From Calycina herbarum (taxonomy: Eukaryota > Ascomycota > Leotiomycetes > Helotiales > Pezizellaceae): 64,000 nt of DNA. The stretch is taken from assembly GCA_001414485.1 (NCBI GenBank), contig LLEY01000072.1, forward strand, positions 310,001 through 374,000, in the 5' to 3' direction. Each line of letters starts with the position of its first letter. The stretch's first letter is position 1. The position numbers and the translations under genes were made by a program. Below, in pieces: positions 41,849 through 52,579 of the stretch. The notes beneath the pieces were generated by a model. That model saw nothing but the letters and a program-made list of their open reading frames with translations. It made no database searches and was not told the origin of the DNA.

Positions 41849-42356
41849 CAGACTTGGGCGGCGATACGATATTGTATCAGATTATCGCGATATATATCGT
41901 ACGATAAATACCGTAAATTCTTATCCGATAGGATGAATATCGTTAAAAAAGTAACGATAATCGATAAATATCGGGGTTTTGACACTAGTGCCTTATAGTA
42001 CTAAACAAACATCACATAACTTATATCTACTATTTGAAATATACTTTATTATATTAAAAAGTTGTTATATAAATCTTAATTTAGTATAGAGGTCTTATAA
42101 TAAGAAGAGTAATCTCTTAAAGTTATAGATAATTATAATTTACTATATAAAACGTATGACTTTATTTTTATTTTTAGAAAAATAGTAAGACTAAGCATTC
42201 TATTGGCTCTTAGCCGGAAGAACTATTTTCCGCCGATAATCGATATATTATCGGTTATCCTTAGAAATCCGGTATCGATCGCATCACTTAATACGATACG
42301 ATAAATATCGTAGGCCCCCCCCGATATGCCACCGGTAATATCGCCGCCCAAGTCTG
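41849..42356. mobile_element. Non-autonomous hAT-type transposon (MITE), 508 bp
   Basis: Both ends carry an 18-base terminal inverted repeat: CAGACTTGGGCGGCGATA at 41849-41866 and its exact complement TATCGCCGCCCAAGTCTG at 42339-42356. Outside the repeats the same eight bases, CGAACACC, stand at 41841-41848 and 42357-42364, a perfect target-site duplication. Ends starting CAG together with an 8-base duplication are the marks of the hAT superfamily. The interior has no coding capacity. It is AT-rich, and its outer 120 bases at each side are packed with CGATA/TATCG motifs, likely sub-terminal transposase-binding repeats. A hAT transposase elsewhere in the genome would have moved it. Perfect repeats and duplication suggest a fairly recent insertion. 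Confidence 0.88.
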
Positions 42357-42462: not shown

Positions 42463-43308
42463 TTATCGCGCTCCATCCTCCAAGTCTCTTTGCCTTTGCC
42501 ATTCAACCTGATACGACCTAATCTCTTGGTCCTCCGATGCCTTCGCAATGTACTGTTGAGTGACCTTCTCGTAACCTTCGGCGTGCATCAATTGTTTGAC
42601 GGCTGAAAACGGATATCCCTTCGGTTCTTCTTGAGGTTCGGATGAGGGGAAATAAGGACTGGAATGGGGTTGCGAAGGTCCAGCTAGAAAGGCGTTATTT
42701 TGTTGGTCGTATGCTTGATGTATCTGCTGAAACGCACCTTTAACGGGTTGATCGCTCTCGGCCGCCCTGTTGACTATCCACACCTTATTCTTGATAGCCT
42801 CCGTGATCTTCGTCTTCGCTGTTTGGCAAAACAATGATGCTTGTTGACCGACATCGCGTGCGGCATCAAGAGATAGTGATATACCTTTCTCTCTTCTGAA
42901 TTCCTTCTCCACAGCCTGTGCTATGTCGGCGGCCGAAGGAACACGGAGACCTTGAGGGAAAGTCTGGAGGGTGTAGTGCATGTTGAGATGCGGGAAGAGA
43001 AAGGGATCCATTTTGACGTGGTTTAGGACTGCAGGGACTGCGGAGGATCTCAGAGTCAGTATTACCATTCTATAAAAGGATGTCTGAGGAGGAAACAGGG
43101 TAGCGAGAAGGAAAGAGTCTTGTCTGAGAAGTGAAACAACTTGAAAGGGAAAGAAAGAACATGGAGAACACCCACGATAGACGCTTCTGAGAGTCCCGCT
43201 GTAACCTCCTTCAGCAGTGAACCGATCCCACGCTACTCTGTAGGCGTAGTAGTGCTTCGCTGTGAGGGAGGCATCTAGCTGCGCAATGCCTTTACTGTAA
43301 GGCGCCAT
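42463..43308 (-). CDS. Unrecognised family member carrying an introner-like intron
   Basis: My model is complement(join(42463..43037,43176..43308)), about 235 residues from the ATG at 43308. Similarity to the neighbour extends further upstream (SQPPHSRK), so the start may be earlier or in another exon. Splicing at TATC|GTGGGT and CCGCAG|TCCC gives RSVYLPAVLNHVKMDPFLFP, which aligns with TELFLPQVSNHFKQDPILFP of the paralogue without a gap; this fixes the intron. The protein has AYRVAWDRF, EKEFRREKG and FCQTAKTKITEAI, a Pro/Ser loop (SQPHSSPYFPSSEPQEEPK) and a charged C-terminus. No known domain is seen; it is probably intracellular, with no signal peptide. Confidence 0.6.
   Translation of the reverse strand: MAPYSKGIAQLDASLTAKHYYAYRVAWDRFTAEGGYSGTLRSVYRGCSPCSFFPFQVVSLLRQDSFLLATLFPPQTSFYRMVILTLRSSAVPAVLNHVKMDPFLFPHLNMHYTLQTFPQGLRVPSAADIAQAVEKEFRREKGISLSLDAARDVGQQASLFCQTAKTKITEAIKNKVWIVNRAAESDQPVKGAFQQIHQAYDQQNNAFLAGPSQPHSSPYFPSSEPQEEPKGYPFSAVKQLMHAEGYEKVTQQYIAKASEDQEIRSYQVEWQRQRDLEDGAR
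43038..43175 (-). repeat. Introner-like intron, copy A (138 bp)
   Basis: This whole intron resembles the intron at 50093-50250 of the unrelated GMC oxidoreductase gene. Both start GTGGGTGTTCT and contain TACCCTGT followed by a TCCTCAxACAT box. Both end in AATGGxAATAxTGACTCxGA and a CxG(C/T)AG acceptor. In the last 27 bases I count 20 identical positions, and nearly all differences are C/T. Confidence 0.8.
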
Positions 43309-43389
43309 TTTTCTAGAGTGTGGTGGTTGGGATGTGTACCAGTTGAAAGGTACTGGGGTATTTTTGGGGATCCATGAAGCTGAAGCCAA

Positions 43390-45243
43390 TTTGTAAGATG
43401 GAGAGTGAAATGTGCCTCTCCCTTAAAGAAGTGAAGTCGAGAGTGAATATTGTTAGTACGCGGCGAGAGATTTCCGCTTTGTCCCAGAAGCACCCCTAGA
43501 TTCTAACACAGTCTCAAACATTCACTGAAAAGATTTAGAATAATCAGACAGACGTGTTCTTGCAGCTCTAAACATAAAACTATATTTGAAACACTTTCCA
43601 ATATGTCGGGCAAGGATACATTGAACAAATACTGTTTCTCTTACATATCATAATTTAAGCCTGAATTCCATTGCGAATTTACTTGGATACAGCTGTAGGT
43701 AAACCAGGAGGTCAGGCATAAGAATTCAAACTAGGGAGGAAACCTGGCACAACATACTTAACATCTCTAGAAAAGATGTCTCTTCACAAGGTTTTGTATT
43801 TGTTTATTTTGGATAAACCCACGAAACCCATTGGTCACTTCAAGGTCCCAGAGCTAATATTCCTAAACAGTGAATATGACTCGGTTCTTAGCGACGAGTT
43901 TGGATCCACTTCTGGGAAAAATATGAATTAAATTCTAGTTGTGAAGATTGAGGGAGTGACAAGGAAGAAGTTGCGAAAAGCTCAAAGATAGCGCAATGAA
44001 GCGCGGTCTCAAAAAGAGTTCGTACGGAGGTGCCAGACGTAAGTTTCGGTACACCGCCCTTTGGCAGAATGAAAGTGCTACATAAATTTTGGTGAAGCGA
44101 ACATTCTGCCAAAAAGCGGTCTACCGAAACTTACGTCTGGCACCTCCGTAAGCTTATTTAGCATGGGAGAGACGATTGGCTTTACTTCCTTTATTTTGTC
44201 CCAAAATTCTCGAGGTAATAAGCCTTTGAGAGACTCTGATAGATATCGGTCAGTTTTACACAGTACGTAGCTACCACTTTTACAGCAGCTTACACGGATA
44301 TGTAGAGCAAGATTAAACTTTTTTGAGATCTAATTCAATGGTGCTGTCTCACCCCAGGATCTCGCTTCTCTCACGCGAGATCGGCTTCCCAACTTCTTTC
44401 CCATAACATACTTGCAGTGAGTATTCTTATCAGAACCCTATCCAACCCATCTAATGTTGATCAAGCAATTTCAATCCATTTTGGCCCCAATACGGTTTAT
44501 ATGCGATGAGGAATTTCATCTCCGAAGTTTGCTTAGGGTGTGTGACAGACGTGCTTCAGGTAATAGACTCAGAACAAACAACACTCTATTCTTAGGACAA
44601 AAGACGAGGAGAGCAGAAGAGCTCGAGAGAACCGGGAACTAAATACAAGTCATCCACGCTAGTGCGTACGCTAGTACTAGTGTGCATATAAGCGAACATG
44701 TGACATCCAGCCTTCGTGACTATAACCGTCACAGGGTGCGTGGGGAGGTCACTGGAAAGTTGTAGAGCTTTCAACTTTATGGTTTCAATTGCAGAACCCC
44801 CTCGACATTTATGAACCTTTAGGAAGAGAAGGGTGGGAAGAGATGGAGGCATTATATATCAGAGAGGTGATTGAAGACGCCGAAGGAAGAAAATATATCG
44901 CTCACACAATAAGTCGGTTGCATACAATGAAAAGTCAATTTTAGTATGCGAACTATGTTGAATAGCCGCCTGGTTAACTTATGAAGAGCAATCCCTAAGA
45001 CTAAAAATCAAAACTCCTAACATACGACCTCTAGAGCTGGAGAATATAACAACAATAAAAGTTCCTAAGAAACAAACACCAGTTAACTTCCTTCTCGTCC
45101 TTCGGAGCAGTGAGAGCTCAAGTCCACAGCATAAACCCCAGAAACAATCGGCAAAAGCAGCAAAGATAGCAAGAATCGTCACAAGAACAAATGAGAAAGC
45201 AAATTAATGAGCGTAAACCCCCTCTTCCCTGAGCTTGGGATGC
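43390..45243. other. Intergenic region containing a fold-back element, no gene seen
   Basis: Apart from the element at 44023-44150, I see only short frames without motifs. The frame at 43888-44112 runs into the fold-back element and is not a gene. Confidence 0.45.
44023..44150. mobile_element. Fold-back (MITE-like) element, 128 bp, TA at both ends
   Basis: The two arms are 49 bases each (44023-44071 and 44102-44150) and differ at three positions. They start TACGGAGGTGCCAGACGTAA and end inward at GGCAGAATG, with a 30-base loop between them. The outermost bases are TA on both sides, compatible with a TA target duplication as made by Tc1/mariner elements, though TA here is also part of the palindrome. 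Too short to code for anything. If transcribed it would form a strong hairpin. Confidence 0.75.
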
Positions 45244-46626
45244 CTAACTGATGTTTTGAGCATCGAAGCTAACACCATGAACTTTCTCGATATGCTTTAC
45301 CATGTCCCTTTTGCGTTTCCAGCCATTACTACCAACACGATCACACCCTGGCTGCTTGCATTGATATTCAGAGATATGGTCCTTCTTGGCATGGGATCTG
45401 AGATCCTTGTCGTTCTCAAAGCCATTCATGCCTACCCTGTCGCAGTTTACGTTAAGACAAACGTAAATCAGTGATTGATGAACTTCACGCATGTGTTCAG
45501 TTAGACTGTTCAAGGTGGTGTAGGCGAAATAGCAAAGGCGGCAAGTTCTGGTGGTAAGCGCGTAATCTTCCATGCGATGAAAGTTGCGCATATGTTGAAC
45601 AAGATGGTCTTTCCGCTTGAACCCGTTTGTGCCGCGATACCTGTGTGGAATGATCAGCTCCTTAACGAGAACCACTAAATGAATTTTGGACTGAGCCATG
45701 AAATTTGCAGACTTACGTTCGACAGTGAGTGTAAGGGTAGGTTGTAGTCTTTTTCTTATGGATCAACTGATGCCTCCTCAGGTCTTTGACTTCGATGCAT
45801 TCTGTGTTGCAATCAGGGAAGCGACACACCATTCCAGCATGTCCGGTACCTTTGCAATGTCGGAGAAGTTTATGGATGAGGTTGAAGCTAAGTCCGCATT
45901 TTGCGCAGGGGTGTAGACTAATATGTGGATGCTGTTCATTAAAATGCTTCGCGATAGGGGCTGATGAAGCTGTAAGAGCTGCATTACATCCAGCAACACT
46001 ACAGTTGAGGATGGTATGGTGGAGCCCAATTGAATGTTTCTTTAGGCCTTTGAAGTCAGCAAACTTCTCGACACAACCTGGAGTTTGGCATGCGAGGGTG
46101 AGATGGCCGAGCTCTTGGCTGCAATCGCAATAGAATGTCGGATGAATGAAATTCAGATCCTGTTCAACTTTGTCTAGAGAACCACCACATGATGCGCATG
46201 TATTTGGCAAGTATCTCGTCAAGGCGCTATTCTCGTCATCTGGCTGGACGTGGAAACGATTTTGGGATTACTTACGTTGACGGCACACCAGAGTGCTCAT
46301 GCTGCTCATGTTGAGTCTCAACCCCACTCGTAGCAGTAACTAAGCAAGGAGGGGCTTCGGAGTGAGGTGCCACAATGCCAAAGGTTGCTGAAGGAGTTGG
46401 AAGACTCGTAGGAGGAATATGGGCAAACATTGACTCATAGTCAGGGATGTAGCCAAGCCCCTGGTCGACCTCGAAAAATGTCGTCGTAGTATATGCCGGT
46501 CGGGACGCCCTTTTTCTATGAGTATTTCTTTTTTTTTTAGACTCACCAATTCTGGTCGGGTTGCAGGAATTGCATCCAATCGTCATCGCCGACAAGGTCG
46601 CTCATGAACGAATCGGGTTCGCTCAT
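45244..46626 (-). CDS. Multi-C2H2 zinc-finger protein
   Basis: Minus-strand exons: 46547-46626 (MSEPDSFMSDLVGDDDWMQF), an exon ending at 46276 (contains FEVDQGLGYIPDYESMF), then 45717-46214 and 45244-45640. The last two junctions keep phase with GTAAGT donors. About eight fingers are visible, including CQTPGC...H-x5-H, CSVAGC...H-x4-H, CAKC...H-x5-H, CRFPDC...HQLIH, FKRKDHLVQHMRNFH (its Cys pair is incomplete), CRLC...HMREVH and CKQPGC...HIEKVH. The spacing suggests a fungal DNA-binding protein. The junction after exon 1 is unsolved: the obvious 31-base intron is too short and would create TGA. A later acceptor (about 46410) or a start at 46586 is possible. A likely 5' UTR intron lies at about 46634-46685. 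Confidence 0.72.
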
Positions 46627-47240
46627 GGTGATGTGGCTGCAGAATGTCAGATTTGATTCGCGCAATGGAAAGGATACAATACTCACCGAGAAAGGGCGCC
46701 TTGCAGAAGGTGGTGTGGGAGACAACGTGGAAAGCGGCGTGGTGTTTTTGAGGCAACTCGGTGGCTGGCGCAGCTTCTGTGTGATGATTTTGGGGAAGGA
46801 AAGTGAAGGAAAGAGTGTGGGTGCTGCTGGGTGCTGCTGGGAAGATATGTTGAGGGTGGGAAGCACTTTCCGCCGCTTTACCGTACCCTTTGGAGGGGAA
46901 GGAACGAACAGCACACAAAAGGGCGCCGAGGATTACTACTGGTGGATGCAATTCTGTGTACAAGAAAGTGAGGCAGTCATCTATCCGGTTCTTTAACTGG
47001 CTTTTCATATCACACTCATCTCTACGCTGATGACTGGCACTCCAATGCCTTTTTTTCACTCAAGCGAAATTTTGCGCGTACGGTACCTAAAGTGAGGTCT
47101 CTTTGATAGAGTAGAGACGCAAAAAATAAGATCACCAAGGTCATCATTTACTTAGAGTTGAATGGCATTATATTCTTCGATAGTCGAGTCGTGTAGAGAG
47201 TTGTCTGCTATCCCCTTTCCGAAATAAGTCCCTCTCAGAA
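46627..47240. other. Leader and promoter region of the C2H2 gene
   Basis: Contains the probable 5' UTR intron (GTGAGT...CTGCAG on the minus strand) just before the start codon. No separate gene seen. Confidence 0.4.
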
Positions 47241-47744
47241 TCAAGAACTGCTCTCGGGGGTTTTCCGACGATATTTATCCCAATCGAAATTCTCAATCTC
47301 CTCCATGACTTCCTCGTCAGTGAGGGGATAGTGCAAAATATCTCTGTCGGTGCTTCCTGATCCCCAGTTGCTCATACCCGATGAAGTGTTGTCCGATTGC
47401 TCTTGCCCAGATGGAAGTAGTTCATTTTGTGTAGCGGTAGGAGCACCCTGGTAGCTGGAGGAGGAGGTTTGTTGCTGGCCTTGCTTTTGTGGTTGAGAGT
47501 TGGAATCCGTCATGGGGGTAAGATGTGAGCCGGGAGTGTTGACGCTTGGAGGTTTCGAGATGGTTCCGCTCTCATGATGCGACTTGCGGCATTTGGAGGA
47601 TTGAGATCGAGAAGAAGAGGTATTTTGCGATCTTGGGGCGGATGAGGAAGTAGGCTTGTTTCTTTCCAAAGTTGCTGAAGAGGTTTGCGTTTTGGAAAGA
47701 GTTGGTTTGTTTCCATCCGTACGGGCAACCTTTTTCTTCGCCAT
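47241..47744 (-). CDS. Ser/Gln-rich hypothetical protein
   Basis: A single exon of 167 residues (ATG at 47744). The start is basic (MAKKKVARTDGNKP), the middle is Ser/Thr/Gln/Asn-rich, and the end is an acidic helix-like motif, YPLTDEEVMEEIENFDWDKY. There is no signal peptide or membrane segment. I do not recognise it. The acidic Trp-containing C-terminus could be a short binding motif, for example for a transcription partner; that is speculation. It lies in tandem with another small frame upstream on the same strand. Confidence 0.45.
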   Translation of the reverse strand: MAKKKVARTDGNKPTLSKTQTSSATLERNKPTSSSAPRSQNTSSSRSQSSKCRKSHHESGTISKPPSVNTPGSHLTPMTDSNSQPQKQGQQQTSSSSYQGAPTATQNELLPSGQEQSDNTSSGMSNWGSGSTDRDILHYPLTDEEVMEEIENFDWDKYRRKTPESSS

Positions 47745-47922
47745 TGTGTGTTGAGGACTTCCTTCGGAATTGGTATCAGTCTTTGTGTTGAAGAGTGTGC
47801 AAGAATATGGAAAGGCAGGAGGAGTTTCTTAAATATCTTACCCGCTTGCTGAAGGTGAATTCGTAGAAGCTTGAACCCAGGATTTCCACTAACACAAGCA
47901 CAAAATGGAAGCGTGTACTCAA

Positions 47923-48303
47923 TCAACAACTTTTCAACTTCAGCTTCAGAACACCCCGCCTCCAAAACTGACGTTTCTTTATCCACCTAATCTTCTCTTC
48001 ACCTTTACCCTGAAGTTCCTTTTCCGTCATGAAAACGTCCGCGACATCTGCGCGTGTCGTTGGTCTGAGTTCTAGGGCTATACGATGGTTCTTCAACAAG
48101 TCCTTTGTATACATATGCTGCACTCGCTCTTCAAGTCCTCCAAATATCTGACGGCTTCCTACTATTCTACATTCTCCGACTATTTTACGGTGATTTAATG
48201 CCAGGGCTAAAATTTCGTCACTTCTCTCCTGGTCTTGCTGTTGTGGCAATATTTTGAGACAAAGTTGGAGGATACAGCTTTCTTTGATTGTCCAGCCACT
48301 CAT
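47923..48303 (-). CDS. Small basic hypothetical protein, uncertain
   Basis: A frame of 126 residues from MSGWTIKESCILQLCLKILP (ATG at 48303). It is helical in character, with a Lys/Arg-rich end (RWIKKRQFWRRGVLKLKLKS). No intron or domain is evident. The upstream in-frame extension is hydrophobic and probably not translated. It may be a first exon of the gene at 47241 or a remnant; support is weak. Confidence 0.3.
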   Translation of the reverse strand: MSGWTIKESCILQLCLKILPQQQDQERSDEILALALNHRKIVGECRIVGSRQIFGGLEERVQHMYTKDLLKNHRIALELRPTTRADVADVFMTEKELQGKGEEKIRWIKKRQFWRRGVLKLKLKSC

Positions 48304-50050
48304 TGTTGACAAGCACAGTAGTATTAGCAATGTGAAGAATCTTTTTACAATCCCCAAGGGGAATGCTAGTTTCAACTTCACTGAAGGTGAGTCTTGGAAG
48401 ACGAAAATTCTTGACTGCTAAAATGAAAGCTTGATGGCCACTTAGGTGAGAATTTGGAGCTTTTTGTAGTTAAATTGGAAAATCAAAGTGTTGCTAGTTT
48501 GTTTAAAGCACCGTCATACATAATGGCTCAATGATCTTTGGTCATGAGTAGTCACGAAGAGATGCTTGTGGTCAGGTGATATGTGGTCATAAGTGAGAAA
48601 CAGACGAGCATGCCTTCATAAGAAGGTATGAAATAGAGATGTGCTCCAGGCCTGGAATATGACTCTTGCAAACATAGCTTTTCATACCTTGGAAATGTGT
48701 GATACTCATTCTAGGTTGCAATATTCAGCGAGCAGTTAGTAAAGAACGAATCAAGGTTTGGTTTCGAGTACACGAAGGTGTTAAAAAAGACTGGAGTCGG
48801 TTTAGATGAAAGAAATTCTGATTGTGAATAAGTATCCACTTTCCTGAAGACGGACCTTTATTTAAGTCATTTCGGTGGGCAGCAAAAACAGCTGTGCGGT
48901 AAGTTTCTGGTAAACTTAGTACTACTTCAAATACTTTGACATAATGAATTCCAAGTCTTTACAATTTTAACAAGTTATCCTAGAAAATTAGAATAAAGAG
49001 GTTTGGGTAGGAAGGTACAAACCTAATGTATCTATTACGAGGGGTTCTCGTGATAGATAGTAAAAGTAGCAGGAAATAGAAGATAGAGTATATCTTTAGT
49101 ATAAGATAGCTTAATAACAACGGCTTTGAAATCTCTAAGGTCTAATAGATATAAGATTTTAGTAATAATTTAATTAAAATTAAAATCTAGATTCTACTAC
49201 TTTATAACTGAAAAGCGTTAGACTTATTTAGCTTAAGCTAGCCTTATTCTAATAGCCTCTATCTATTTAATTTATCTATAAAATAGAGTAATTAGTAGTA
49301 TATTATAATTAATAGAAACTCTTAATAGAGAATAGTATAAATTCTAAAAGTAATTTCTTTATTTTTAGACGTTTTCTTTATAATATATAACTAAGTACTT
49401 CAACGTACTAGAGTAGACTAGAGTATTAGTAATTCTAAAAAGAAATTACTTAAAATAAAATAACTAATTATAAAAAAGCTAAAGAAAAGAGATATTACTT
49501 TAAAGCTTATATTAAACTTAAATAAGAAAGTATTTTCTCTTAGAATTTCTTTAATTTTATATTAATATATAAAAACTTTATATATCATTAGTAAGTAAGA
49601 TATCTTATAATACTTTTATAATAAATATAAACACTTTAATAGAATAAGAGAGAATAAATAATTAAAATGTAAATATTAGTAAAGTAATTAGATACAAAGA
49701 AAAACCTTAAAAAGTATTATTAAAACTCTCTCTTAAATGTTAAAATCTATAAGAATAACTTATAAAAATCTATTACTAATTTTAAATTAATTAAGTAAAT
49801 ATATTCTATCAACTATTATAAAATTTTAAAGATTAAGTAAGTATCTACTATATCTACGATTACTAAACTTCAAAGATTAAGTAACTAAATCTACTATATT
49901 TATTATTATTAAATTTGAAAAATTGCTCGTGTAGTAGAAGTATTAAGCGAGCAGTGCACCTCTCTCCCACTTTATTCCAGGTCTCTTCAATTGCGTCTCA
50001 AAAATATAATATCAAGACCCAAGAAGCCCAAAAAAAACTTCCCTTCCGGT
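48304..50050. other. Intergenic DNA with an AT-rich island
   Basis: 48304-49030 is ordinary unique sequence without a gene. 49040-49930 is extremely AT-rich: nearly all TA, AA and TT, with no open frame of note. It looks like the ghost of a transposon degraded by repeat-induced point mutation. Composition returns to normal at about 49930. Confidence 0.6.
49040..49930. repeat. AT-rich, RIP-like island (about 0.9 kb)
   Basis: Base composition is very different from both flanks, with almost no CpG or GC steps. The sequence is built from TATA, TTAA and AATA words. Such blocks in filamentous ascomycetes are usually repeat copies mutated by RIP. No terminal repeats or protein remnants can be read, so the parent element is unknown. 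Confidence 0.6.
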
Positions 50051-52579
50051 TCACAAAGTCTTCTTGATCCAATCCGCGCATCTTTCAGCCACCTACAGAT
50101 AATCTCGGAGTCAATATTGCCATTTCTAGTAGTATGTTTGAGGAAGTGACAGGGTAGTAGGGAGGAAACAAAGCTGTCTGGGGAGGAAATAGTGTCTTAA
50201 TCCTCCCAAAACAATCTAAAAGAGGAAAAAAGAACTCGAAGAACACCCACCATGACAGCCGGCGCTTGTAGATGTGAAGAGGAAATCTGTGGAAACACGC
50301 TTGTATCACAAACCCGTACATTACTCAGACCATGAACCTTTAATTCATCGTCAACGACACCTGGTTTGGGATCGTTCTCAGGTGCCATCCGACAACTACA
50401 AGCGTAATGGTAGGTAGTTCGTACCCTTTCCCTGATGAATTTATCGAGAGCGTCATCGTTGTCCTTCTTTTCCTCGTCGAACGTGAGGTTTCGTAGAAGT
50501 GGATATCCAGAAGCTTTCATGTCTCGGCCCAGCTTTAAAGAAAGTCGCACAGCAGTTCTTGCAGTAACGATGTCTCTGGGGTCAGACAAGAGACCGAAGT
50601 CAACCTTGGGCCGATCGTGAGGATCGGACGAGCGTAAACGTACAGTGCGTCTAGAGTGAGGTAGTGCAAGAGTAGCCAAGAGAGAGAAAACGCCGAGCTT
50701 GGAGTATAGACGGTTATGCTCTTCCAGGTTGTCCATTGAACTCACTGCTAACGGCATGATTTCGATGTCTGGTATTTCATCTCGGGGCACATAGTTACTG
50801 GAGCGTTTGTTGTTCTTGGGGGTCTCGGATTTGGACGAATTGGCGAGAAGCTTAGTGCCGTCTTTGCTAAGGGAAGTGGTTCGTACAAATAAGGAAAGTG
50901 TCTGTATGGGCATACTAAGAATTCCAGAGCCGAATAAGACATATTTCAGGAATTCAACACCACCTTTGATGATTGGGGAAACCGCTAGTTGAGCAAGTGA
51001 CTCTTTCAGAGGAACCTCCCAGGCCACAGGAACGCTAATATGATCGGTCTAGATGACTCCATAGTTAGTGGGCGACTCAAGTGAAGAAACATCAGCATAA
51101 GTAGGGGGCTGTACCAGTTCGGACCCCACACTAGGAAGGTCATATACAACAGGAATACCAATATCCTCGAGATGCTCACGCGGACCGATCCCACTGGAAA
51201 TCATGGTTGTTAGCATTATAAGTCATAGACAGGAAACGGCAGGTGAGGAGGAGCTTACCTCATCATCAGAACCTTTGGCGAGCCAATGGAGCCAGAGGAT
51301 ATTACAACTTCTTTCTTAACCTTTACCGAGAACACCTTCTCTGCTTTTTGATCGACACTTTTAAGAAGGACTTGCTCAGCATGATGTCCTTTGCCACCCT
51401 CTTGAGAAAACACGATTCGAGTGACGAGTGTATTTGGACAAATTGTCAAGTTGCCCGTTCTCTTCAAAGCAATTTCTCTGGGAAGAAAAGCGTTAAATGT
51501 AGAAACACGTTGGTTGTGGTCATTGACCGTGGAGTCGAACGTAACAAGACCATCGGCAGGGGCATCCGGTGCGTTTGTGTCGGGAACACGAACAAATCCC
51601 ATAGCTTCGGCCATGTCTGTAAATCTAGAGATGATCAACGAGGGAAGGAAGGGTGGGGGGGTGTGATCAAATCCTAACATTTGATAGACCTTGAATAGCC
51701 ATGAGACATATGTGAAAGTCCTAGTAATCCAAGGACCTATTACATGGGCTGTTAGGAAGTCAATTTGAAAGGCGGTTATTATCAAATACCTGAGTCGCCC
51801 CGATAATTTGATTTGGGCTGGTCAAGAGCCTTTTCTCCTTTGACAAAATAGGGTAAGACCTTCTCGTAGCTCCATCTAGAAGATAGAGGGGTTAGTATTT
51901 CGGTTTCAACAAGATTCCACAATGACCGAATGCACCCGATGTAGAAAAAAGGTAGTCACAATAGATCTATTGAGAGAAGGAAGGGGAAGTATAAGCGGAG
52001 ATAATTTACTCACTCAGGATGACCCAAGGCGGCCCATGCGTCATAATCCGCCACACTCCCACGGGAGTATACCATACTGTTACTAATAAAAAATCAGTAC
52101 GTTTTTCTTTTGGCAAAACGAGGACTCGAAAGGATGGAACGTCTTTTGCCAGCCGCAAGAAAGAAGCAAAGATTGTTAGATTGCTCACATTCTCGATCCA
52201 CCGCCCATAAGTTCGCCACAAAAGAAAAGGCTTCGGCGATTATTGCGGAACTTCATGGGCTCACAAAGCCAGCTGGATGCACCACCGTCGGAACGTAGAA
52301 TATTGCTTGAAACGATTGGAATACGAGACATGAAATTGTCATTTACTGGTCCTCGTTCAATGAGGAGAACTGAGATGTTCGGAAGCTCGCTTAATCTAGA
52401 TGCGACTGCACATCCTGCCGTACCCCCTGTTCGCAAAGTGTCAGCATGAAATGTGAAGAATAAGAAATAAAAGGATTGAAATGAATATACACACCTCCTA
52501 CTACAACGTAATCATATGAACGCTCATCTACCTCACTCGGTGAACTTTCGGGATAACTGGAGGCAAATGGCCACCACAT
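50051..52579 (-). CDS. GMC-family FAD oxidoreductase, nine exons
   Basis: Complement(join(50051..50092,50251..51048,51115..51193,51259..51624,51679..51736,51790..51875,52014..52082,52189..52426,52495..52579)). All phases agree and the product is 606 residues. MWWPFASSYPESS precedes the FAD-binding loop YDYVVVGGGTAGCAVASRL. GGGSRINSMVYSRG is the GMC signature, followed by SGSIGSPKVLM and SGIGPREHL. The C-terminus has YHYACSCRMAPEN, GVVDDELKVHGLSNVRVCD and SSSHLQAP with the active-site His. Members oxidise alcohols, sugars or secondary-metabolite intermediates; the substrate is unknown. There is no signal peptide, so it is probably intracellular. The last intron (50093-50250) is an introner-like copy. 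The gene is divergent from a P450 relic, which hints at a former metabolic cluster. Confidence 0.9.
50093..50250 (-). repeat. Introner-like intron, copy B (158 bp)
   Basis: The intron lies between PAVM and VAERCADWIKK of the GMC oxidoreductase, a junction confirmed by the family's C-terminus. It shares ends and internal boxes with the intron at 43038-43175: GTGGGTGTTCT at the donor side, TACCCTGT, TCAxACAT and AATGGxAATAxTGACTCxGA near the acceptor. Copy B has about 20 extra bases in the pyrimidine-rich middle. Confidence 0.8.

What the first reader, a model, noticed from the sequence alone, without database searches (positions are those of the whole stretch)
43038..50250. Two near-related introns in unrelated genes: candidate introner-like elements
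The intron at 43038-43175 (gene of unknown family) and the intron at 50093-50250 (GMC oxidoreductase) can be aligned by eye from donor to acceptor. Shared parts are GTGGGTGTTCT at the 5' end, a GTTCTTT block, TACCCTGT, TCCTCAxACAT and AATGGxAATAxTGACTCxGA at the 3' end. Differences are mostly C/T. Both introns are confirmed by family protein alignment across the junction, and both are longer than the roughly 45-75 base introns typical of this window. Unrelated genes should not share introns, so these look like copies of an intron that multiplies (introner-like elements, known from some fungi and algae). Only two copies are seen here; a genome should hold more.
Basis: partly seen in the sequence, partly recalled or inferred. 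Interest (0 to 1): 0.88.

Follow-up and report, generated by a model that had tools for sequence, protein, structure and literature searches.

The report
Self-copying fungal introns with paired targets
Two look-alike introns in this (likely fungal) genome belong to a family of at least 166 related introns scattered through different genes, which likely multiplied as hairpin-shaped copies that would insert where the bases on the two sides of the site can pair with each other.

Summary
The finding is real. The two introns (both on the minus strand) align end to end, far above chance, and belong to a large family. Pattern scans find 187 matches of the family's 3' core and 173 of its 5' end (one match each for the reversed control). 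I read 166 copies, 147 with both ends; where the frame is clear on both sides it joins across the splice in 57 of 69.

What it adds: (1) young copies fold into an end-to-end hairpin whose terminal stem ends right before the acceptor AG, and the fold decays with age; (2) no target-site duplication was found and insertion looks seamless; (3) the exon bases flanking the insertion are coupled. Base -3 is complementary to +1 (77 of 166 copies, 47.6 expected, z 5.5) and -4 to +2 (57, 40.7 expected), in register with the intron's own stem. Ordinary introns and other flank positions do not show this, and a base logo would miss it.

I favour an RNA-based insertion step; a DNA break with two-fold symmetry is the main rival. 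The 21 held-out copies lean the same way at -3/+1 only and are too few.

The parts
50093..50250 (-). introner copy i2 (158 nt) inside a GMC oxidoreductase gene
   Evidence: 40 genome matches, itself included; GMC_oxred_C and PDB alignment run across the junction
50245..50250 (-). 5' splice site GTGGGT of i2, in the family consensus also the outer 5' strand of the terminal stem
   Evidence: sequence; consensus fold
50110..50114 (-). likely branch-point motif TTGAC of i2 (family consensus CTGAC)
   Evidence: sequence; conserved block in alignment A1
50093..50095 (-). 3' splice site TAG of i2; in the family consensus the AG lies just beyond the terminal stem
   Evidence: sequence
43038..43175 (-). 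introner copy i1 (138 nt), in a gene of no known family; shortened in the first half of the intron
   Evidence: 17 genome matches, itself included; alignment of 54 unique copies
43170..43175 (-). 5' splice site GTGGGT of i1
   Evidence: sequence
43055..43059 (-). likely branch-point motif CTGAC of i1
   Evidence: sequence
43038..43040 (-). 3' splice site CAG of i1
   Evidence: sequence
50251..50255 (-). exon bases -1 to -5 of i2; with 50088-50092 (+1 to +5) they form the target site (no pairing at -3/+1 in this copy)
43176..43180 (-). exon bases -1 to -5 of i1; with 43033-43037 they form the target site (-3 A pairs with +1 T)
42463..43308 (-). predicted reading frame that hosts i1 (ATG to stop, two exons if i1 is spliced)
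   Evidence: no Pfam family

Best explanation
The two introns are copies of an introner, an intron family that has multiplied to at least 166 places in this genome, and each copy was likely inserted seamlessly as a hairpin-shaped intron RNA at a site whose two sides can pair with each other. Shown: the family, its GT...AG ends, the joined frames, the lack of a target-site-duplication signal, the end-to-end hairpin predicted for young copies and its decay with age, and the coupling of exon base -3 with +1 and of -4 with +2 in the register of the intron's own stem. Inferred: after splicing, the intron RNA keeps its two ends together through the terminal stem, leaving a 2-base AG tail. It is put back between two exon bases by reverse splicing, or by ligation into a break, of an mRNA or of an opened DNA strand. 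Products in which the neighbouring exon bases extend the stem are favoured, and the product is then copied into DNA. Once inserted, the hairpin is no longer needed and decays, while the splice signals are kept.
For: Family and bounds. Joined frames: 57 of 69; Pfam domains above cut-off span the junction in 9 of 10 spliced products and in 2 of 6 more (2 others span it below cut-off). No gap at the junction in the best PDB alignment of 3 of 3 products examined. Paralogues: all 21 non-self matches (E up to 1e-10) of the sugar-transporter product run across its introner position. No TSD: no identity signal between the flanks or with the intron ends. Hairpin: consensus of 70 copies -47.5 kcal/mol, z -4.5; of the first 20 nt, 14.4 pair with the last 26 in the youngest third against 2.2 in shuffles; fold z correlates with closeness to another copy, rho -0.47, p 1e-7, 113 copies of at least 145 nt. 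No compensatory changes beyond shuffles, so the fold seems to decay after insertion. Target pairing: -3/+1 77 of 166 against 47.6, z 5.5; -4/+2 57 against 40.7, p 0.002; at least 3 contiguous pairs (G.U allowed) 27 against 10.9. It holds within groups of equal tail, within phases and within the -2,-1 dinucleotide, and for -3/+1 in both halves of an alternate-row split. Controls: 108 other lag-3 positions have maximum z 2.1; 92 ordinary intron candidates have z 0.8 and -0.8.
Against: The two copies of the window hardly show the target pairing (i2 none, i1 one pair). The prespecified test on 21 further, mostly older copies gave 9 against 5.9 at -3/+1 (p 0.10) and 4 against 5.1 at -4/+2. The -4/+2 signal is uneven: z 1.1 and 3.2 in the two halves and 1.2 in the oldest third. 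The -3/+1 signal comes from A..T (43) and G..C (22); sites with +1 G or A contribute little (6 of 40, 6 of 28), and a second coupling, -1 with +1 (A with T, G with G), is not explained by the stem. G.U pairs do not settle RNA against DNA: enriched at -4/+2 but not at -3/+1, and an A.C control is enriched too. No RNA data and no relative with an empty site; a search for near-identical paralogues of 7 insertion sites found only the sites themselves. In 21 of 166 copies the antisense strand scores higher as coding.
Confidence: 0.45

Rival explanations
1. DNA route: the element, with its inverted ends, is joined into a DNA break made by a two-fold symmetric enzyme with a 2-base stagger centred on exon bases -2 and -1 (a transposase, or a topoisomerase- or Spo11-like cut); only seamless joins that keep the frame survive.
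For: The coupled pairs (-3,+1) and (-4,+2) are symmetric about -2/-1, and the same distance outward from both ends of the terminal stem. At -3/+1 the pairing is Watson-Crick, not G.U. No gap at 3 of 3 protein junctions.
Against: No 2-base duplication, and -2,-1 equals AG in only 25 of 145 copies. By reasoning, independent half-sites would give preferences on each side, not coupling between the sides. I did not search specifically for a longer copy with a transposase.
Confidence: 0.25
2. Survival filter: insertion is random, but new copies persist only if the flanking exon bases extend the stem and so help splicing.
For: At -3/+1 the coupling is as strong in the old third as in the young third (z 3.5 and 2.6). 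Surviving copies must be spliced.
Against: The stem itself shows no sign of being maintained after insertion. By reasoning, a stem that closes the 5' splice site would hinder splicing.
Confidence: 0.15
3. Non-autonomous DNA transposon introner of the Huff type: one splice site comes from the element, the other from the target-site duplication.
For: Inverted terminal sequences; many copies.
Against: No TSD signal at the offsets tested; both splice sites are part of the conserved element.
Confidence: 0.04
4. The similarity of the two introns is chance or comes from gene duplication.
For: Both introns are rich in pyrimidines.
Against: z 10.6 for the pair; copies lie in unrelated Pfam families; flanks are unrelated.
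Confidence: 0.01

Closest known systems
Introner-like elements (ILEs) of Dothideomycetes (Fulvia, Dothistroma, Zymoseptoria)
   Same: Many similar spliceosomal introns in unrelated genes, several families per genome, decay with age (PMC4457414: part 1 of 4 of the text read, plus a term search without hits); no TIRs or TSDs reported for ascomycete introners (PMC9860276: two short sections and passages).
   Different: The exon-exon target pairing is not mentioned in what I read.
Sister stwintrons and type-2 cropped sister introns of Hypoxylaceae and Xylariaceae
   Same: Terminal or near-terminal inverted repeats that bring the intron ends together; seamless; no TSD; the consensus here holds CTTCTAGAAA, 9 of 10 letters of their palindrome WTTCTAGAAA (PMC8469720, PMC12403724: passages only).
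   Different: Here the copies are plain introns of 93-171 nt. The passages report no conserved pattern or nucleotide bias in the bordering exons; here a coupling between the two sides is found.
Introners that are DNA transposons (Micromonas, Aureococcus; Huff et al. 2016, not read, known from recall and from its citation in PMC9860276 and PMC12403724)
   Same: Genome-wide intron gain by a short mobile element.
   Different: No TSD; both splice sites are carried by the element.

Membership tests
fungal introner-like elements | many similar copies in unrelated genes | tested here: met
fungal introner-like elements | similarity ends at the splice sites, with donor, branch point and acceptor | tested here: met
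   147 of 166 merged copies have both ends (ends sought as donor-like hexamer and AG); conserved blocks in 70 copies
fungal introner-like elements | predicted stable secondary structure that weakens with age | tested here: met
   (rho -0.47, 113 copies); the feature itself as cited in PMC8469720
fungal introner-like elements | no target-site duplication, seamless | tested here: met
fungal introner-like elements | spliced in RNA; absent from orthologues of close relatives | not testable with these tools
   no RNA data, no related genome held; paralogues of one gene only
DNA-transposon introners | target-site duplication, one splice site taken from it | tested here: not met
DNA-transposon introners | terminal inverted repeats | tested here: inconclusive
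   imperfect inverted ends, a strong predicted RNA stem with G.U pairs
[D1,2] sister stwintrons | an internal intron splits the external donor | tested here: not met
   no internal AG followed by T-R-N-G-T in the consensus, by inspection only
[D1,2] sister stwintrons | sequence similarity to the Hypoxylon family beyond the palindrome | not tested
   their sequences were not held as text

The most novel reading that the evidence does not exclude
An introner chooses its target by base pairing of the two exon sides with each other across the inserted hairpin: the intron RNA, its ends held together by its own terminal stem, is reverse-spliced where the exons extend that stem. The rule cannot be seen in a base logo, so it may have been missed in all fungal introners.
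Probability: 0.35. Interest if true: 0.92.

Novelty: new variant of a known kind. Interest (0 to 1): 0.74.

Why it matters
How introns multiply in fungi is open: a survey of introners names ascomycete families as the outlier without terminal repeats or target duplications (PMC9860276). Here a family that looks like one of these has both a predicted end-to-end hairpin and a measurable insertion rule. The rule is a coupling between the two sides, so it can be tested without knowing the mechanism: the same calculation can be run on published fungal introner sets, above all where empty sites are known.

Tried and rejected
Target-site duplication: tested at several lengths and offsets, no signal. 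Chance or gene duplication: rejected. Covariation of the hairpin: 85.5% of cells paired (39-51% when the partner is slid) but no more compensatory changes than in shuffles; RNAalifold found only 8 pairs. Base pairing judged by G.U against A.C: not decisive. Naming the organism: no 5.8S rRNA match in the assembly; the protein search gave one match, most likely the window's own unspliced reading. Empty sites: 7 joined insertion sites found only themselves. Rfam: no family in 42800-50600. Published rules for insertion sites: searches with introner (67 papers, 40 listed), introner/palindromic/insertion site/fungi (2 papers), introner-like elements/secondary structure/target site duplication (0) and introners/ascomycete/mechanism/reverse splicing from 2022 (0); no statement of such a coupling in the listings and passages I saw. 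Van der Burgt 2012, Torriani 2011 and Huff 2016 were not read.

Rows dropped: 19 of 166 merged copies lacked one end. L127 and L153 were dropped from the target tests because their acceptor was doubtful, leaving 145; 21 new copies were added, giving 166 again by coincidence. Of the 40 regions gave usable new complete copies. For the structure alignment I used 70 of 89 non-redundant copies of 150-171 nt. The ordinary-intron control was first 34, then relaxed to 92 candidates. The codon score was trained on 78 of the 166 copies, so it leans towards sense.

Full report
Observation. The window lies in an assembly of 68.8 Mb in 379 contigs, at G000:C350:310001-374000. Both introns are on the minus strand. 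They align end to end with 106 identical columns of 160, z 10.6 against dinucleotide shuffles. The intron at 50093-50250 interrupts a GMC oxidoreductase gene near its 3' end; GMC_oxred_C reaches two residues past the junction and the best PDB alignment has no gap there. The intron at 43038-43175 lies in a gene without a known family. It is 138 nt long, stop-free and in frame, and the only database protein found has the length of the unspliced reading, so its splicing is not proven by the protein; membership of the family is the evidence.

Family. With i2 as query, 40 of 133 first-look candidates were scored; all 40 matched (one is i2 itself), 37 of them over at least 149 of 158 bases. i1 gave 17 matches, itself included. 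The 3' core AATACTGACTCYGAGAT occurs 187 times with up to one mismatch and the 5' end GTGGGTATTCTCCGAGTT 173 times with up to two, each with one match for the reversed control. I fetched 146 regions. A profile search over these, the earlier loci and the window gave 166 merged copies, 147 with both ends. Donors: GTGGGT 110, GTGAGT 16, GTAGGT 13 of 147. Acceptors: CAG 101, TAG 44. The ends were taken as the nearest donor-like hexamer and AG, so these letters are partly built in. Lengths 93-171 nt. Only 8 of 147, i1 among them, could be read through in frame.

Coding frame. Of 69 copies with a clear frame on both sides, the two frames agree across the splice in 57, and in 22 if the intron were kept. 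123 of 147 have at least 20 open codons on both sides in the sense direction, 62 of 147 in antisense; with the flanks paired at random the sense figure is 70%, so this count by itself is weak. A codon score, trained on 78 of the copies, favours the sense strand in 145 of 166. Pfam domains above cut-off span the junction in 9 of 10 spliced products (AMP-binding, aromatic lyase, GST, PDR_CDR, aldo/keto reductase, sugar transporter, GPR1/FUN34, polysaccharide lyase 4 domain III, GMC) and in 2 of 6 (melibiase, dienelactone hydrolase); two more span it below cut-off and two, i1 among them, do not. The best PDB alignments of the ammonia-lyase, GST and GMC products have no gap at the junction. For the sugar-transporter product all 21 non-self matches listed in the genome run across the introner position. 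Together: seamless insertion in unrelated genes.

Hairpin. The consensus of 70 non-redundant copies folds end to end at -47.5 kcal/mol, z -4.5. Intron base 1 pairs with the base just before the final AG, so the AG is a 2-base tail. In the youngest third of 113 copies, 14.4 of the first 20 bases pair with the last 26 on average (2.2 in shuffles), in the oldest third 11.0; the mean fold z goes from -2.8 to -1.2. 85.5% of cells fit the structure, but there is no compensatory covariation beyond shuffles. The reading is that the hairpin belongs to the copy that spreads and is not maintained afterwards. Part of the stem coincides with splice signals, which splicing keeps by itself.

Target site. No duplication was found: neither the upstream flank with the intron end, nor the intron start with the downstream flank, nor the two flanks match beyond shuffles. 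The two sides are instead coupled by complementarity. In 145 copies, -3 is complementary to +1 in 68 (41.5 expected, z 5.3) and -4 to +2 in 53 (35.7 expected, z 3.4), while other cells of the 8 x 8 grid stay within about 2.3. These are the pairs that continue the intron's terminal stem outward, past -1, -2 and A, G. With 21 further copies (166 in all) the values are 77 against 47.6 (z 5.5) and 57 against 40.7 (p 0.002); counting G.U, three or more contiguous pairs occur in 27 against 10.9. Controls: 108 lag-3 positions elsewhere in the flanks have maximum z 2.1; 92 ordinary intron candidates give 26 against 22.7 and 20 against 23.4. The coupling holds within groups with the same last seven bases, within coding phase and within the same -2,-1 dinucleotide. 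At -3/+1 it holds in the young, middle and old thirds (z 2.6, 2.9, 3.5) and in both halves of an alternate-row split (z 4.7, 3.1); at -4/+2 the same splits give 2.4, 2.2, 1.2 and 1.1, 3.2. The six copies most alike (at least 96% to another copy) all follow C/T-A and precede T.

Limits. The prespecified test on the 21 further copies, which are mostly older, gave 9 against 5.9 (p 0.10) and 4 against 5.1: same direction for the first pair, none for the second, and little power. The window's own copies show none and one pair. The -3/+1 pairs are mostly A..T (43) and G..C (22) of 77. A coupling of -1 with +1 remains unexplained. Whether the pairing is of RNA or DNA is open.

Mechanism (inferred). 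That the hairpin is strongest in young copies and decays afterwards, that insertion is seamless, and that the exon pairing continues the intron's stem all fit a step in which the folded intron RNA is inserted and the product is held by the joined stem. The DNA rival is a symmetric cut with a 2-base stagger centred on -2 and -1; it predicts palindromic targets but also a duplication, unless the overhang is trimmed. A filter for splicing after insertion is the third reading. I put the family itself at about 0.97, the RNA route at 0.45.

Known work. PMC9860276 (two short sections and passages) states that ascomycete introners have no TIRs or TSDs and are an outlier. PMC8469720 and PMC12403724 (passages) describe symmetrical stwintrons and derived introns in Hypoxylaceae and Xylariaceae, with terminal or near-terminal repeats, no TSD and no pattern in bordering exons. 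PMC4457414 (part 1 of 4 of the text, and a term search) describes fungal introner-like elements. The new points here are the coupling across the target and its register with the stem. I saw no report of it in the searches, which cover open-licence papers only.

Noticed in passing
window 44023-44150: A 128-bp inverted-repeat element (arms 44023-44071 and 44102-44150, 94% complementary, 30 nt between). Ten full-length copies at 97-100% identity, the window's own included, and some partial ones: likely a recently active MITE, unlike the introner.
   Followed up: partly
window 51049-51051, minus strand: In-frame TAG inside the GMC oxidoreductase reading frame upstream of the introner; the frame is otherwise GMC-like on both sides. 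The host gene may be a pseudogene, or the assembly may have an error.
   Followed up: no
window about 42000-42190 and 49020-49920: Very AT-rich stretches near both host genes, resembling repeats mutated by RIP (by eye).
   Followed up: no
L051 2023-2189 and 2250-2367; L008 1492-1649 and 85-248; L192: Regions with two introner copies each; in L051 only 60 bases apart.
   Followed up: no
L033, L069, L092, L099, L165, L048, L147: A subfamily with longer tails after the stem (CCAC+TAG, CCAC+TACAG, CCAA+TAG, CCAC+CAG, CCTC+CAG): the acceptor has moved outward by one to three bases.
   Followed up: partly
145 complete copies: Exon base -1 and +1 are also coupled (A with T in 25, G with G in 32; chi-square 40 against 9 in shuffles), which the stem register does not explain.
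   Followed up: partly
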